This document shows, one piece after another, positions 25,955 to 62,951 of a DNA stretch of 64,000 nucleotides. Numbering within the stretch: the first letter of the stretch is position 1; each line of letters opens with the position of its first letter. Origin of the DNA: an uncultured Archangium sp. (GTDB taxonomy: Bacteria > Myxococcota > Myxococcia > Myxococcales > Myxococcaceae); assembly GCA_903905455.1 (NCBI GenBank), contig CAIVGN010000072.1, positions 62,001 through 126,000 on the forward strand. The letters run 5' to 3'. The position numbers were made by a program, and so were the translations under genes. Under the pieces are notes generated by a model. It saw only the letters and a program-made list of their open reading frames with translations. It ran no database searches and was not told where the DNA came from.

Positions 25955-26572
25955 TCAGATCGGCGCGAAGATCTTCAGGCCGCTGCGGCTCGCGTTGCCG
26001 GCCAGGGTGTTGCGCTCGATGAAGTCGCTGTAGCTGCTGTGGCCGTCACCGGCGGTGATGGCCGTGTGCCCGTAGATGGCGCCCAGGCGGCTCGAGGTGT
26101 GCTCCCAGGTGAGGACCAGGCCCGGCGTCCGGAGCGCCTCGGCCAACGAGATGTTCACCTGCTTGAACTTGTTGCGCGGCAGGTTGTTGTCGATCTGGTT
26201 GCCGTTGCCCCAGACCTTGATGCCGAAGGTCTTCTGGATGGCGCGGCTCACGCCCGTCGCGCACAGGCCCTGGCCGCTGGAGCCGCCCATGCTCAGCGCC
26301 GTGGCGCGACCCGCCGCCGCCAGCCGCGACGAGCCCTGCACCCCGCCCGCGTGCACCGGCTTCGGGCCCGTGGTGTGCGCCGGCGCCGCGGGGTGCTTCG
26401 GCGCGTGGAAGGTGTCCTGCGTGCTGTGCCCCGGCAGCCGCAGCGAGTGGCCGGCGATGATCAGGTTCACGTTGTGGATGCCGTTGAGCTTCGCGAGCGC
26501 CCCGACCGTCGTGTGGTACCGCGCCGCGATGCCGGACAGCGTGTCGCCATTTCGGATCTGGTAGCTGGACAT
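25955..26572 (-). CDS. LysM-domain protein with CHAP/NlpC-like C-terminal domain
   Basis: 205 residues. The N-terminal LysM motif (about 3-47: YQIRNGDTLSGIAARY…) binds peptidoglycan-type glycans. A Pro/His/Ala linker follows, then a domain with 'GQGLCATGVSRAIQ' (Cys at the start of a helix) and 'YGHTAITAG' (His after a strand), the Cys/His layout of CHAP or NlpC/P60 amidases. No signal peptide precedes the LysM, which is unusual for a wall enzyme and suggests export by another route or a phage/effector-like origin. The stop codon directly abuts that of tyrS. Confidence 0.75.
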   Translation of the reverse strand: MSSYQIRNGDTLSGIAARYHTTVGALAKLNGIHNVNLIIAGHSLRLPGHSTQDTFHAPKHPAAPAHTTGPKPVHAGGVQGSSRLAAAGRATALSMGGSSGQGLCATGVSRAIQKTFGIKVWGNGNQIDNNLPRNKFKQVNISLAEALRTPGLVLTWEHTSSRLGAIYGHTAITAGDGHSSYSDFIERNTLAGNASRSGLKIFAPI

Positions 26573-26728
26573 GCTTCATTGTCGGAGCGCCCGGAACCTC
26601 GACTTTCGGGGACAACGTAAATGGCCTTTCCGATTCAGGGGCAATTCGGGGGCGGGCCGGAAGGGAGGCGGGTCGGGAAGGGGCACCCCCGCCCAGCGCA
26701 CCCCGGCCAGCGCCTCGACGCCGGCGCC

Positions 26729-26891
26729 GGGTGACGCGCTCGTGCAGGCTTCGCCGAAGGTGACCTCCGCAGGGTGCGAGGGTCCACGAGTCCGTCATCA
26801 AAATTGACAACCGCTCAGGTCAAAACTGGACGTTGTCAATTTTGATGACGCACCCGGAGACCTCCGCGGGGAGCGCGCGTCTCTCCGTCAC
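26729..26891. repeat. Dispersed palindromic element, copy 1 (MITE-like)
   Basis: A 62-bp core (26791-26852) has AT-rich inverted arms; the inner 18 bp (GTCATCAAAATTGACAAC at 26794-26811 and its exact complement at 26832-26849) are perfect and flank a 20-base loop. Copy 2 at 61220-61381 has the same core. When one copy is reversed, similarity continues on both sides to GTGAC ends, about 162 bp in all. The AT-rich core stands out in a 70% GC genome. The segment 26573-27013 contains no other gene that I can support. The copy lies about 120 bp upstream of a linker-lipoprotein gene. Confidence 0.85.
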
Positions 26892-27013
26892 CAGGCGCTC
26901 GCGGTCGCGGGGCTGGGCGTGCTCGGCAACCACGAAGGTCAACCGCGCCCCCGCCCGCCATGCCGGCGCCGTGTCGCTGGCGTCCACCCGGGGCCCCGTG
27001 CTCCGCTGACCGC

Positions 27014-28252
27014 GTGCGTGCTTCCCTGCTCTGCCTGCTGTGCGCCTGTGGCGCGTTGACCCCTCCCTCCTCTGACGCCGGTACAGGCGGCGGAACTGCG
27101 TCCACCGGCGGTGGCGGCGGCACGTCGACCGGAGGCGGCACGTCGACCGGAGGCGGAACCGCGACCGGAGGCGGAACCGCGACCGGAGGCGGAACCGCGA
27201 CCGGAGGCGGAACCGCGACCGGAGGCGGAACCGCGACCGGAGGCGGAACCGCGACCGGCGGTGGAACCGCGACTGGTGGTGGCACCGCGACCGGCGGTGG
27301 CACCGGAGAGTTCACCTTCTCCCGCCTGACCTTCTCCCCCGTGCCCTCGGGAGTCGTGAACTCCCCCGACGTCGTGGGCCTCGCCCGGCGCACCAACGGC
27401 GAGCTCTGGGTCGCCCTCGCCGACTCGAGCATCTACCTCGCCGCGTCCGGCTCGCAGACACTGCGGCCGCTGGCGAACCTCCCCTCCATTCCCACCACGC
27501 GCACCCAGGTCACCGGCCTCGCGGTCACGCCCACCGAGGTCTTCATCTCGAAGGCCGGCAGCGTGCACCACTGCACGGGCACGTGCGCCTCGCACAACGA
27601 TTTCACCGTCGCCACCAGCGTCGGCGGCCTCGAGACGACGGTGGCCCTCTGCGCCCGGGACGCGCGGGTCTTCATGCTCAGCCAGAGCGGCAGCACCAGC
27701 TCGCTGTGGGAATACCAGGGCGGCACCTTCACCAAGACCGTGGCCGACGTCGGCGTGGCGCACGGCATGGGGTGTTTCATCGCCGAGAACGGTGACGTGC
27801 TCGTCGTCGGCGACGACTCGAACGTCGCGGTGCTGACCAGCAACGGCGGCCTGAACAACGAGCCCATCGACCTCGGCGCGCACCCCGGCGCGAGCTGGAG
27901 ATCCGTGACCACCTCGGCCACCGGCGGCTTTCTCGTGGGTGGAGGCTCTGGCTACCGCTTCGCCACGCGCCAGGCGGGCCACTGGGTCGACCTGGCGCCG
28001 AACACCGCGGGCGCGGTGATGACCACCGTGCTCGCCGCCGGCGCCGACGTCTACGCGGGGGGCTTCACCAACACCGGCAGCACCGCCACCCCGGCCTTCT
28101 TCAAGTGGAACGGGACCAGCTTCGTCGCGCTCTCCCCGCCGCCCTTTGCCATCGACGTCACCGACGGCCTGGCGGTCAGCGCCAACGAACTCTACTTCGG
28201 CGGCCCCAGTCGCACCTCGGGCTCCTACGAAGTGCTGCACGGCACCCGCTGA
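27014..28252 (+). CDS. Lipoprotein with Gly/Thr linker and propeller-like domain
   Basis: 412 residues from GTG 27014, which opens a lipoprotein signal (MRASLLCLLCAC); ATG 26960 would give an unnatural Arg/Pro front. After the lipidated Cys comes a ~75-residue linker of repeated GGGTAT units, then ~310 residues of beta-rich sequence with recurring 'V.GLA…GELWVAL', 'GLAVTPTEVFIS', 'VTTSATGGFLVGGG', 'TVLAAGADVYAGGF' blades. This is compatible with a beta-propeller of the two-component-sensor or Ycf48 kind. It is probably exposed on the cell surface. It is convergent with the next gene, nine bases apart. Confidence 0.72.
   Translation: MRASLLCLLCACGALTPPSSDAGTGGGTASTGGGGGTSTGGGTSTGGGTATGGGTATGGGTATGGGTATGGGTATGGGTATGGGTATGGGTATGGGTGEFTFSRLTFSPVPSGVVNSPDVVGLARRTNGELWVALADSSIYLAASGSQTLRPLANLPSIPTTRTQVTGLAVTPTEVFISKAGSVHHCTGTCASHNDFTVATSVGGLETTVALCARDARVFMLSQSGSTSSLWEYQGGTFTKTVADVGVAHGMGCFIAENGDVLVVGDDSNVAVLTSNGGLNNEPIDLGAHPGASWRSVTTSATGGFLVGGGSGYRFATRQAGHWVDLAPNTAGAVMTTVLAAGADVYAGGFTNTGSTATPAFFKWNGTSFVALSPPPFAIDVTDGLAVSANELYFGGPSRTSGSYEVLHGTR
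27113..27306. repeat. 18-bp tandem repeat encoding GGGTAT/GGGTST linker
   Basis: About ten units of an 18-bp sequence (GGAGGCGGAACCGCGACC and variants) in frame. Unit number could change by slippage without shifting the frame, altering linker length by six residues each time. Confidence 0.9.
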
Positions 28253-59393: not shown

Positions 59394-59945
59394 TCAGTCG
59401 ACGCAGCCTCCGGCCTTCCGCTTCGAGTTGGTCTCCACGTACCGGCCCGAAGCGGTCAGCTTGTCGATGGTCACCGCGAGGCGCTGGAGCATCCGCTCCG
59501 CCTCGTGATCGCGCGGCAGCTCGGCGGTGCCTTCGCCGCCCAGCTGCACCCGGTGCACGCGGCCCTCGCGCCGCAGGGTGAGCACCAGCCCGGGGAACTC
59601 CTCGACCTCCGTGGGGTAGCGCTTGGCGAAGTGGAAGAAGTCGGCGCGGGCAAACTCCGAGAAGAGGTGCTTGGCGAACGCCGGCTCCATGCGCCAGTCG
59701 CGCTCCCCGATGGCGGCCACGTCGGCCACGCCGGCGAAGTGCACCCGGCCGTTGGCGCGCAGGGTCAGCGTGTAGACCGGGCACTCGCCCGAGCAGGCCG
59801 TGCGCTCGAGGATCAGCTCGTCGGGCTCGGGCTCAGGGGCTGGCGGCGGCGCGACCTCCACCACCACCGGCGCCGCGGGCGCGACCACCGGCGCAGGCGC
59901 GTGGGCACAGGAGAGGACCAACAGCCCCAGCACCGCGCGCTTCAC
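59394..59945 (-). CDS. DUF6438-domain lipoprotein
   Basis: 183 residues from GTG 59945, overlapping the upstream stop by GTGA. The signal peptide ends VLSC (lipobox). After a Pro/Ala/Val linker, 'ILERTACSGECPVYTLTLRANGRVHFAG' is the opening of DUF6438 (Cys-x3-CPxYxLxxxxxGxVxYxG), a domain known from many bacterial lipoproteins and of unknown function. It is coupled to the monoheme lipoprotein upstream. Confidence 0.8.
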   Translation of the reverse strand: MKRAVLGLLVLSCAHAPAPVVAPAAPVVVEVAPPPAPEPEPDELILERTACSGECPVYTLTLRANGRVHFAGVADVAAIGERDWRMEPAFAKHLFSEFARADFFHFAKRYPTEVEEFPGLVLTLRREGRVHRVQLGGEGTAELPRDHEAERMLQRLAVTIDKLTASGRYVETNSKRKAGGCVD

Positions 59946-61081
59946 GGCTGCACCGGGGGGAAGCGGGCCTCGACTTCGCCGAGCACGTGGGCGGTCTCGT
60001 TGATCACCCGCTGCGAGACGAGCGCCGTGCTGCCGAAATAGCCCAGCGCGCGCAGGGTGCGGCTGCGCGCGGTCTGGGGCCCCGACGGAGAGAGGTCGAA
60101 GGGCGCCGCGGTGTAGCGCTCGGGGAGCGCCGTGACGTCGAGGCCCGCGTCGGTCGCGCGGGGTGCCAGCAGCGTGGTCGAGAGATGACAGCTCACGCAC
60201 TGCGCGGTCTGCGAGGTGTGGAGCGTCGGGTTGTCGACCGCGAGCAGGCCCTGGACCGACTCGCGCTGCGCCCCGGGGCTGGAGTTGCGGAAGTCCGGCT
60301 CCATCACCGCGCGCGAGAAGCCAGGGGGCGCGTCGGCCAGCGGCGTCACCTGGTACGAGTCACCACCGAAGAGCAGCACCTCCTGCGAGCCCGCGTCGAC
60401 GCCGAAGATGGTGATGGGTTGGAGCGAGCCCTGGCCCAGCTCCTCGCCGCGGAAGATCCACACCAGGGCGGCGTGCTGCGTCTCCTGGCCGAAGAGCGTG
60501 AGGCGCTGCAGGTGCTCGGCGCGCGCGTAGCGGCCGACGAAGGCGCCCAGCTTCGCGCGGTAGTCGCGGTCCGCGAGGAAGGCCGCGTTGACCGTGAGCG
60601 CGGCGCTCCGGGGCACGTCCTGCTGCGCGGCCAACGCTCGGAGCTCGTCGACCACCGCCGGCACCTCGACCCGCGGAATGGGGAAGACGGCGTGCAGCGC
60701 GATGTCCTCCACCAGCGGCGGCGTGGCGAAGACCGGCTGCAACACCAGGCGCAGGCTGGCGTCGGCGTCGTCTGCGCAGGGCGTGGGCGTCGCGCGGTCA
60801 CAGAGGTCGAAGCGAAAGGCCACGAGGCGCAGGCGGTCGAGCGAGGTCGTGACCACGGGCTCGGCGGTGGTCAGGCGCGTGAAGCTCGCGAGCGGCAGCA
60901 GGGCCGAGGCCGCGGGGAACGGGGAACCGGCGTCGAGTGACTCGAGGGGGAGCAGGAAGGTGACGTCGTTGAGGCCGAGTTGCCGCGACTGGGTCGGGAC
61001 GTACGGAGTGCCCGCGTCGGGACGCGGCGTGGAGCCGCAGGCCGCGAGCAGGACCAGCAGCGGGGACATCGGCGTCTTCAT
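59942..61081 (-). CDS. Lipoprotein with one CXXCH site, unknown function
   Basis: 379 residues from ATG 61081. Signal peptide MKTPMSPLLVLLAAC ends in lipobox LAAC. The main body is alpha/beta and not recognised. Near residue 275 a single 'TAQCVSCHLST' could bind one c-type heme, and the surrounding sequence ('NPTLHTSQTAQCVSCH') resembles the heme part of di-heme peroxidase-like or DUF1592-type proteins. A C-terminal helix follows. Coupled to the DUF6438 gene. Confidence 0.7.
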   Translation of the reverse strand: MKTPMSPLLVLLAACGSTPRPDAGTPYVPTQSRQLGLNDVTFLLPLESLDAGSPFPAASALLPLASFTRLTTAEPVVTTSLDRLRLVAFRFDLCDRATPTPCADDADASLRLVLQPVFATPPLVEDIALHAVFPIPRVEVPAVVDELRALAAQQDVPRSAALTVNAAFLADRDYRAKLGAFVGRYARAEHLQRLTLFGQETQHAALVWIFRGEELGQGSLQPITIFGVDAGSQEVLLFGGDSYQVTPLADAPPGFSRAVMEPDFRNSSPGAQRESVQGLLAVDNPTLHTSQTAQCVSCHLSTTLLAPRATDAGLDVTALPERYTAAPFDLSPSGPQTARSRTLRALGYFGSTALVSQRVINETAHVLGEVEARFPPVQP

Positions 61082-61219
61082 GGCGCGCAAGGTACGGGAG
61101 CCGGGGTGAACACTCCACCAGGCGCCAGTGCTGGCCCTCACAGCAGCCTGAAGGGACGGCGGGGGCACTGGGTCGCGCGACGAGGCGGTCGCGGGGAGCA
61201 CCTCGGCTCGCGGCGCACC

Positions 61220-61381
61220 GTGACCAGGAGGCGCCCGGTCCCCGCGGGGGTCTGCGACTGCGTCATCAAAATTGACAACTGCCGGGGCTGTAACTTGGCG
61301 TTGTCAATTTTGATGACGCACTTCGAGAGGCACGCTCCCCCCGGAGCCTCTTTCCCGAAGCGTGCATCCCGACGTCACCCC
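61220..61381. repeat. Dispersed palindromic element, copy 2 (MITE-like)
   Basis: The 62-bp core is 61259-61320, with 21-bp perfect inverted arms (61259-61279 and 61300-61320) and a 20-base loop. The core arms match copy 1 (26791-26852) at all but one position, while the loops differ. Reversed, the flanks also match copy 1 out to GTGAC/GTCAC ends. The 421-bp gap 61082-61502 otherwise contains nothing I can support. It lies about 120 bp upstream of the lamin-tail lipoprotein gene. Confidence 0.85.
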
Positions 61382-61502
61382 GGCGCGTGGCCGAGGGGCT
61401 CTCCGGGCAGGGCACGACGAGGGGTACCCCGCCCCACACCACCCTCCTGGCGGCTGCGCGCGATGCTCGATTCCGCCGAGGCCAGTGGTATTGGGCCTGA
61501 TC

Positions 61503-62951
61503 ATGAAGCGTCTGCTCCCGAGCCTTGGCCTGTCGCTGTTCTTCCTCGCGTGCACCGGTGAGCCGCAGAAGCCGCTCCACTTCCAGACCCACCGCGACCC
61601 GTTGTCGTCGGGCATGGTGATCAGCGAGGTCTACGGCGGAGGCGGCAGCAGCGCCGCGACGGCGGCCTACAAGTACGACTTCATCGAACTGCTCAACCTC
61701 GGCACCACGGCCGTCGACATCTCCACCTGGTCCGTCCAGTACACCAGCTCCACGGGCGGCGGCTGGTCGGTCACGCCGTTGACCGGGCTGGCGCCGGTGC
61801 AGCCGGGTCGCTCGGTGCTGGTGCGCATGGGCACCAGCGGCACCACCGGGGCGACGCTCCCCGCCCACGACGTCAGCGGCGGCAGCGCGATGAGCGCGAC
61901 GAGCGGCAAGGTCGCCCTGGTGGCGTCGAGCACCGCGCTGACCACCCCGTGCCCGGCCTCGAGCGCCTGGGTCGACTTCGTCGGCTACGGCACGGCGGCC
62001 AACTGCTCCGAAGGCAGCCCCACGCAGGACACGGCGGCGGACACCTCGGCGCAGCGCAGCTCGAACGGCTGCGCCGAGACCGACGTCAACGCGACGGACT
62101 TCACGGTCGGCACGCCCTCACCCCGCAACAACGCCGCGGCGGTCATCACCTGCAGCGGCGGCGGGACCGGCGGCGGCGCGGGCGGCGGCACGGGTGGTGG
62201 CTCCGGCGGCGGCACCGGCGGAGGGTCGAGCGGCGTCTGCACCACCATCTTGAGCTGGCCCACGGCGGCGAGCGCGGCCGGCTACGACATGACCAACGAG
62301 ACGGTCTTCGCCGACCTCGCCACCCAGGACCCCGACTTCGCCGACGGCGGCATGGACACCCTGACGCTGGAGGCCTTCTTCGGCGGCATGCCCGCCCTCA
62401 CGCTGCCGGCGAACGCCACCTTCACGGCCAACGACAGCTATGGCACCTGCGAGATCTGCGCGGTGCTGACGCAAGGCTGCAACTCCGCGGGTGACTGCAC
62501 CCGCGAGTACTTCGCCCAGAGCGGCCTGGCCTCGGTGAGCTCCGCGACGCAGAGCGCGAACAGCGGCCTGTTCTCCGGCCTGATGACCAACGTGCGCTTC
62601 GTGGAGTGGGACTTCGTCAACGACGCGGCGGTGCCCGGCGGCCGGTGCGTGGTCGTCGAGTCCCAGGCCTTCCAGGTGACGTGGCCGGCCACGACCCCGA
62701 CCGGCGGCGGCAGCGGGACCACGGGCGGCGGGAGTGGCGCCACGGGCGGCGGCACCGGAGGCGGCAACGCCACCACGGGCGGGGGCAACGGCGTCACCGA
62801 CGCAGGCCCGGCGGCGGACGCGGGCACCGGCGGCGGCTCGGGGAAGATCGGCGGCAAGAGCGGCTGCAGCTGCGCCTCGGGCGGCGAGGGCTCGCTGGCG
62901 CTGGCCTTGCTGGGGCTGCTGGCGCGACGCGGCGCACGACGTTCGCGTTGA
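61503..62951 (+). CDS. Lamin-tail-domain surface protein with MYXO-CTERM sorting signal
   Basis: 482 residues from ATG 61503. The signal peptide ends FFLAC (lipobox-like). Residues ~35-155 are a lamin tail domain ('ISEVYGGGGSS…YDFIELLNLGTTAVDISTWSVQYTS'). A Gly/Ser/Thr linker leads to a second, Cys-containing beta domain (~240-400), then another GGG linker, and a C-terminal 'SGCSCASGG' + hydrophobic helix + RRGARRSR, the MYXO-CTERM signal. Carrying both a lipobox-like start and MYXO-CTERM is notable. It is expected on the cell surface; LTD domains are found in secreted nucleases and adhesins. Confidence 0.85.
   Translation: MKRLLPSLGLSLFFLACTGEPQKPLHFQTHRDPLSSGMVISEVYGGGGSSAATAAYKYDFIELLNLGTTAVDISTWSVQYTSSTGGGWSVTPLTGLAPVQPGRSVLVRMGTSGTTGATLPAHDVSGGSAMSATSGKVALVASSTALTTPCPASSAWVDFVGYGTAANCSEGSPTQDTAADTSAQRSSNGCAETDVNATDFTVGTPSPRNNAAAVITCSGGGTGGGAGGGTGGGSGGGTGGGSSGVCTTILSWPTAASAAGYDMTNETVFADLATQDPDFADGGMDTLTLEAFFGGMPALTLPANATFTANDSYGTCEICAVLTQGCNSAGDCTREYFAQSGLASVSSATQSANSGLFSGLMTNVRFVEWDFVNDAAVPGGRCVVVESQAFQVTWPATTPTGGGSGTTGGGSGATGGGTGGGNATTGGGNGVTDAGPAADAGTGGGSGKIGGKSGCSCASGGEGSLALALLGLLARRGARRSR

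What the first reader, a model, noticed from the sequence alone, without database searches (positions are those of the whole stretch)
26729..26891. Dispersed ~162-bp element with AT-rich palindromic core, copy 1 upstream of a linker lipoprotein gene
The core (AAAATTGACAAC and complement) is found again at 61259-61320 in a genome of about 70% GC. Inverting one copy extends the similarity to GTGAC-type ends on both sides, so the unit is larger than the hairpin. Both copies sit ~120 bp upstream of genes for Gly-linker surface lipoproteins. It may be a non-autonomous mobile element that was co-opted as a promoter or operator (the core contains TTGACA-like bases).
Basis: seen in the sequence. Interest (0 to 1): 0.7.

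Follow-up and report, generated by a model that had tools for sequence, protein, structure and literature searches.

The report
Modular palindromic repeat with flippable core
The two matching hairpins belong to a family of about 30 intergenic palindromes of roughly 300 bases in one bacterial genome; the repeats have shared outer ends and a central hairpin that can be inverted or swapped, and they look like non-coding mobile DNA rather than lipoprotein gene switches.

Summary
Each copy is a roughly 300-335 bp imperfect palindrome, not 162 bp, with outer arms of about 95 bp and a central hairpin with near-invariant arms, TCATCAAARTTGACAAC, around a loop of 12, 20 or about 38 bases. A covariance model finds it at 30 places in this genome at E<=1e-4 and in none of 59 relatives; GTDB, viral, phage, plasmid and Rfam searches found nothing. 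Copies are intergenic with no orientation preference (7 convergent, 15 tandem, 5 divergent of 27, as in the background). Genes reading away from them are not enriched for lipoproteins (4 of 26 against 37 of 330, p=0.52), so the promoter/operator idea is not supported. The same outer arms also flank other cores (a GC-rich hairpin; a TGTCCTCTTTGATGAC repeat; none) and occur weakly in a same-genus genome. In one sister pair the core is cleanly inverted (52 of 54 identical when inverted, 35 of 54 as is) while the outer arms keep their direction. Best reading: a BOX/MITE-like non-autonomous dispersed repeat with conserved ends and an exchangeable, invertible hairpin core. No target-site duplication and no transposase was found, so mobility is inferred.

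The parts
26654..26970 (.). copy 1, whole element (ends accurate to about 10 bases)
   Evidence: all-vs-all similarity of 29 copies, end motif alignment, outer-arm profile hits 26655-26766 and 26868-26971
26655..26766 (+). copy 1 left outer arm (Q type), reading inward
   Evidence: nhmmer E 2.6e-12 (copy is in the training set)
26868..26971 (-). copy 1 right outer arm (P type), reading inward
   Evidence: nhmmer E 1.8e-10 (copy is in the training set)
26793..26811 (+). copy 1 core arm 1 CGTCATCAAAATTGACAAC
26812..26831 (+). copy 1 loop, class A, 20 bases
26832..26850 (-). copy 1 core arm 2 (inverted)
61140..61455 (.). copy 2, whole element (ends accurate to about 10 bases)
61140..61243 (+). 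copy 2 left outer arm (P type)
   Evidence: nhmmer E 5.7e-8 (training set)
61259..61279 (+). copy 2 core arm 1 TGCGTCATCAAAATTGACAAC
61280..61299 (+). copy 2 loop, class A, 20 bases
61300..61320 (-). copy 2 core arm 2 (inverted)
61342..61456 (-). copy 2 right outer arm (Q type)
   Evidence: nhmmer E 1.3e-11 (training set)
25955..26572 (-). neighbour gene: LysM (and weak CHAP) protein, start faces copy 1
   Evidence: (LysM 49.1 bits)
27014..28252 (+). neighbour gene: lipoprotein with TGGG-repeat linker, start faces copy 1
   Evidence: start codon chosen by eye
59942..61081 (-). neighbour gene: lipoprotein-like protein, start faces copy 2; no Pfam match
61503..62951 (+). neighbour gene: lipobox protein with Lamin Tail Domain, start faces copy 2
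   Evidence: PF00932, 37.4 bits

Best explanation
It is a non-coding, non-autonomous dispersed repeat with a modular build. Two inverted outer arms of about 95 bp are the constant ends of a wider intergenic repeat family. Between them sits an inner hairpin module, in this case a pair of near-invariant 17-20 bp AT-rich arms around a variable loop. Shown by computation: copy number, discrete ends, outer arms shared with elements that have other cores, one clean inversion of the core between sister copies, and halves whose closest relatives differ. Inferred: the outer arms are what a transposase acting in trans recognises, as in MITEs; the core arms are conserved because a protein or the hairpin itself is recognised; inversion and exchange of the core come from hairpin-driven template switching or recombination between copies, as for small inversions between short inverted repeats in chloroplast DNA. 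A host function is not needed to explain the data.
For: Model R1 (from 22 copies) finds the element at 30 distinct places at E<=1e-4, plus C59 at 0.91; three of the 30 (both ends of C123, end of C169) share a 141-bp assembly overlap. Similarity between 29 copies falls away about 165-215 bp either side of the centre. Mean pairwise identity per column (22 copies): core arms 0.94 and 0.92, loop 0.77 once oriented, outer flanks 0.61 and 0.50. Outer-arm profile: 97 hits at E<=1 in the own-genome loci (training copies included) against 1 in the same sequence reversed. These arms also bracket a GC-rich hairpin ACTGACGGACTCCGTGG (C89, C12, C171, C238, C125), a TGTCCTCTTTGATGAC-repeat core (C200), and nothing at all (C42:4711-4874). 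Sister copies C12:17563 and C238:64958: core 52/54 when inverted, 35/54 as is; outer 49/64 as is, 33/64 inverted. Halves disagree: C12:17563's P arm is closest to C238:64958, its Q arm to C77.
Against: No target-site duplication above chance: mean 1.85 in 27 copies against 2.26 in mismatched flank pairs. No transposase with these ends was found; PF01797 gives 0 matches in this genome, other transposase families were not searched. No empty site could be shown, because flanking genes are not syntenic in relatives at the three sites tried, and neither are element-free neighbours. The core is better conserved than the ends, the reverse of a simple MITE. Only one of six sister pairs shows a flip. 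The genome is a 251-contig assembly, so recent identical copies may be collapsed.
Confidence: 0.7

Rival explanations
1. A regulatory DNA site (operator or promoter) in front of surface lipoprotein genes, spread by co-option.
For: At the window copies the element edge lies about 44-59 bp from the start codons of three lipoprotein-like genes; the core arms are highly conserved and contain TTGACA.
Against: Lipoprotein-like genes are 4 of 26 start-facing neighbours against 37 of 330 background, Fisher p 0.52. Convergent/tandem/divergent 7/15/5 against background 74/215/70. No sigma-70-like promoter at either copy. Loop length varies (12, 20, about 38), so the arms do not keep one helical phase.
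Confidence: 0.08
2. An RNA element: a bidirectional terminator or mRNA-stabilising hairpin at gene 3' ends.
For: Many stop codons lie right at the element edge (stop-facing distances pile up at 154-201 from the centre); the whole unit folds into one long hairpin, z -3.1 and -4.8 for the window copies.
Against: No T-run terminator predicted. Natural gaps after stop codons are short anyway (median 21.5 for convergent pairs). Five of 27 copies lie between divergent genes. In the arm columns substitutions are mostly absent rather than compensatory: 2 of 22 pairs have two-sided changes. Column pair 47/84 is A-U 7, G-C 7, A-C 4, G-U 4, close to independent.
Confidence: 0.12
3. A two-tier parasite: the core hairpin is its own small REPIN-like element that inserts into the centre of an older outer-arm repeat.
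For: Same outer arms with different cores or none; both core directions occur (9 and 13 of 22); arms more conserved than loop, as in REPINs (PMC3116915, passages read); arms 16 of 18 identical by eye to the repeats of the C200/C59 core.
Against: No RAYT (PF01797) in the genome. I saw no core-A copy standing free of outer arms, though a few have one arm truncated. The flipped sister pair shares a rare arm variant, which fits inversion in place better than two insertions.
Confidence: 0.3
4. Concerted evolution only: breaks at the hairpin tip and gene conversion between copies homogenise the centre.
For: Similarity is highest near the centre and falls outward; mosaic halves.
Against: The loop at the very centre is less conserved than the arms and comes in unrelated classes.
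Confidence: 0.2

Closest known systems
BOX-type composite repeats of streptococci (PMC3049150, passages read)
   Same: Intergenic, non-coding, stem-loop forming, with constant end modules and exchangeable inner modules; S. suis has related elements with different ends around the same inner module.
   Different: Here the ends are inverted copies of each other, the inner module is a hairpin that can be inverted, and the outer modules stay the same while the core changes. Sequence similarity to BOX was not tested.
MITEs, including ERIC/IRU and YPAL/RU-2 (PMC2229807, passages read)
   Same: Short, non-coding, terminal inverted arms, long hairpin fold, dispersed between genes; RU-2 also is not A+T-rich and lacks TA ends.
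   Different: No target-site duplication seen, no TA ends, about 300-335 bp, no source transposon known, core better conserved than ends.
REPINs (PMC3116915, passages read)
   Same: Two strongly conserved inverted motifs around a less conserved spacer, forming a hairpin.
   Different: No RAYT gene in this genome; embedded in 95-bp outer arms.
CGTC-tagged REPs (PMC3733652, abstract and passages read)
   Same: The core begins GCGTCAT and ends ATGACGC; CGTC repeats are said to lack a dedicated transposase.
   Different: Those have 8-9 bp stems with 4-5 base loops within each unit and a CCA-like tail; the arms here have no such inner stem.
Small inversions between short inverted repeats in chloroplast DNA; template-switch loop inversions (PMC12928735 and PMC8794818, passages read)
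   Same: Inversion of a short stretch between hairpin arms; reported sizes 5-50 bp with 11-24 bp repeats.
   Different: Here it is in a dispersed bacterial repeat, with arms shared by about 30 copies.

Membership tests
MITE | terminal inverted repeats | tested here: met
   outer arms found as inverted pairs around different interiors
MITE | target-site duplication | tested here: not met
   27 copies, 1.85 against 2.26 in mismatched pairs; ends only known to about 10 bases
MITE | autonomous element or transposase with the same ends | tested here: inconclusive
   no transposase seen beside the related core in G003/G002 (by eye); genome not searched for transposases other than PF01797
REPIN/RAYT system | two conserved inverted motifs with variable spacer | tested here: met
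   arms 0.94/0.92, loop 0.77
REPIN/RAYT system | RAYT (Y1 transposase) in the genome | tested here: not met
   PF01797: 0 matches; found in 5 of 14 control genomes; assembly 97.84% complete
CGTC-tagged REP | 8-9 bp stem with 4-5 base loop inside each unit | tested here: not met
   arm TCATCAAARTTGACAAC has no such inner stem (by inspection)
BOX-type composite repeat | constant end modules around exchangeable inner modules | tested here: met
   resemblance of architecture, not of sequence
BOX-type composite repeat | sequence relation to boxA/boxC | not tested
   no BOX sequence was compared
ERIC/IRU | 127 bp with TA ends | tested here: not met
   unit about 300-335 bp, ends GGCC-like
intrinsic terminator | GC-rich stem followed by T-run | tested here: not met
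   0 found at both window copies
known Rfam RNA | covariance model match | tested here: not met
   5 copies with flanks, 0 matches up to E 1

The most novel reading that the evidence does not exclude
A two-tier, cassette-like repeat: an outer inverted-repeat element whose central hairpin is repeatedly inverted and replaced by unrelated hairpins, so that each lineage of the genus carries its own set of cores on common ends. The core may be an independent mini-element moved by a nuclease or transposase not yet described.
Probability: 0.3. Interest if true: 0.6.

Novelty: new variant of a known kind. Interest (0 to 1): 0.4.

Why it matters
Dispersed palindromes are common in bacteria, but how they spread without a transposase of their own is open. 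Here ends and core can be told apart, and inversion and exchange of the core can be read from sister copies, which makes the mechanism testable. It also corrects a tempting misreading: two repeats in front of lipoprotein genes in one window were chance company, not a regulon.

Tried and rejected
Operator/promoter for lipoprotein genes: rejected. Terminator: not supported. An early idea that copies specifically abut stop codons was dropped, since natural gaps there are short. A further idea, that copies mark rearrangement breakpoints (flanking genes on different contigs in relatives at three sites), was rejected by its control: in a 20-kb stretch, element-free neighbours are scattered just as much. 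The idea that element ends overlap lipoprotein signal peptides (note 2) was not tested as such and was dropped, since outer arms occur as repeats with genes in all directions. RAYT/REPIN membership: rejected. Target-site duplications: none. Matches elsewhere: GTDB contigs 0 for core and 0 for the C200-type repeat, viral contigs 0 and 0, plasmids and phages none; these tools may leave out the window's own genome. Papers: searches; none of their listings shows this repeat, and the three arm strings occur in 0 papers. My first two alignments mixed orientations and were redone. A first lipobox rule was too strict and was loosened. The gene caller is a home-made codon-usage script, so single starts may be wrong; one start (27014) was set by hand.

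Full report
Observation. The hairpin at 26793-26850 and its twin at 61259-61320 are exact inverted repeats of 19 and 21 bp around 20-base loops. The shared 16-mer, allowing three mismatches, occurs only in these four arms in the 64-kb window; shuffles expect 0.03. The genome (G000, 8.6 Mb, 251 contigs, 97.84% complete) has 17 places with the strict pattern, and 0 of the 59 relatives searched with it have one, five of them from the same genus.

Extent and number. From 22 aligned copies a covariance model was built. It finds 30 distinct places at E<=1e-4 and one more (C59) at 0.91; none of 59 relatives reaches E 0.01. Three of the 30 places (both ends of contig C123 and the end of C169) share a 141-bp overlap that looks like an assembly k-mer, so the true number is 28-30. 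Pairwise similarity of 29 copies (28 of these plus a variant at C125) reaches about 165-215 bp each side of the centre and stops in most; C12:17563, C238:64958 and C125 share more on one side (to about -340), and a few copies are truncated. The unit is therefore about 300-335 bp, and it folds on itself: in C42, 122 of 128 predicted pairs span the centre; z-scores over 29 copies range from -7.0 to +0.8 with 30 shuffles each, and the window copies score -3.1 and -4.8.

Anatomy. Mean identity over 22 copies is 0.94 and 0.92 in the two core arms, 0.77 in the loop once oriented, and 0.61 and 0.50 in the flanks. Arm columns hardly vary; only 2 of 22 predicted pairs have changes on both sides, so the arms are conserved as sequence more than as pairing. 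Loops are 20 bases in most copies, about 38 in C26, C203 and C238:28113, and 12 in C108 and C125.

Core flips and swaps. With outer arms laid in one direction (called P left, Q right), the loop reads forward in 9 and reverse in 13 of 22 copies. This count depends on telling P from Q, which is clear (absolute score 15 or more) in 18 of 23 copies. The firm case is the pair C12:17563 and C238:64958. They share outer arms (P/P score 97, P/Q 16) and flanking sequence to about -340, but their cores match 52 of 54 when one is inverted and 35 of 54 as they stand. Of the five other close pairs that I looked at (C42/C60, C229/C136, the two C89 copies, C3/C235, C203/C238:28113) none shows a flip (for the last pair my P/Q labels were simply opposite). 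Closest partners often differ between the two halves, for example C12:17563 (P arm with C238, Q arm with C77).

Outer arms are a wider family. A hairpin scan of 517 kb of own-genome loci found a second hairpin, ACTGACGGACTCCGTGG with short loops, whose surroundings are the same outer arms. A profile of outer arms (from 29 copies, ten truncated or doubtful arms left out) gives 97 hits at E<=1 in own-genome loci and 1 in the reversed sequence (training copies included). It pairs around core A, around the second core, around a TGTCCTCTTTGATGAC-repeat core at C200, around a broken copy with a group II intron at C59, and around no core at C42:4711-4874. In 465 kb not fetched for weak hits, about 11 sites have outer arms without core A (of the 16 arm hits listed there, three belong to core-A variants C238:28113 and C139 and were dropped). 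Scaled to the genome this would be roughly 200, a rough figure because the loci were chosen around core-A copies. In 830 kb of G003 (same genus) the first-pass profile has 6 hits at E<=0.01, best 2.3e-5; in 396 kb of G005 1 hit at 0.0022. Reversed G003 and G005 give 0 with the iterated profile against 13 forward at E<=1. So the ends appear older than the species, while core A is known only here.

Position and function. Of 27 copies with called genes on both sides (of 29 tried), 7 lie between convergent, 15 between tandem and 5 between divergent genes; all adjacent pairs in the same loci are 74, 215 and 70. Lipoprotein-like genes are 4 of 26 start-facing and 2 of 30 stop-facing neighbours against 37 of 330 others (p 0.52). 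No sigma-70-like promoter and no T-run terminator is predicted at the window copies; myxobacterial promoters of other types are not covered by that scan.

Mobility. Discrete ends, mostly unrelated flanks and shared inverted ends speak for movement. Against it stand the missing duplications, the missing transposase (only PF01797 searched genome-wide) and the lack of an empty site. I therefore infer mobility and do not claim it as shown.

Comparison with what is known. The architecture is nearest to BOX-type composite repeats (PMC3049150) and to MITEs such as ERIC and RU-2 (PMC2229807); the core alone resembles a REPIN (PMC3116915), but there is no RAYT. CGTC-tagged REPs (PMC3733652) share the tag and the want of a transposase but not the inner stem. 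Loop inversion between short inverted repeats is known from chloroplast DNA and as a product of template switching (PMC12928735, PMC8794818). For all of these I read found passages, plus the abstract of PMC3733652. That the host belongs to the order Myxococcales is a guess of mine from genome sizes and gene types; no call names the organism.

Noticed in passing
L090:9730-9931 (contig C59:29729-29930): Group II intron (Rfam RF02005, 120.7 bits) inside a broken copy of the element, shortly after the left core arm.
   Followed up: partly
L041 (contig C123, 3046 bp): The contig's two ends are identical over 141 bp within an element copy, so it closes on itself (tandem repeat, small circle or assembly effect); it carries an 828-aa protein with carboxypeptidase regulatory-like domains.
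   Followed up: partly
L094:4725-5082 and L090:9963-10364; G003 C54:74725, C22:1292; G002 C644:20442: A second repeat with TGTC(C/A)TCTTTGATGAC motifs 48 bp apart at inverted ends, with like motifs in same-genus genomes; its motif is 16 of 18 identical to the core arms.
   Followed up: partly
L049:8086-8620 and 12463 (contig C107): Four copies of the second, GC-rich hairpin core lie within 4.4 kb, three of them within about 0.5 kb.
   Followed up: no
L164:10834-10887 (G003): A 22-bp AT-rich hairpin of different sequence in a same-genus genome, with flanks that by eye recall the outer arms.
   Followed up: no
L082 and L083 (contigs C229 and C136): Two copies with nearly identical outer sequence on both sides, suggesting a segmental duplication.
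   Followed up: no
window:17300-37200 against G003 and G005: Gene order is poorly kept even between same-genus genomes; neighbouring genes fall on different contigs.
   Followed up: partly
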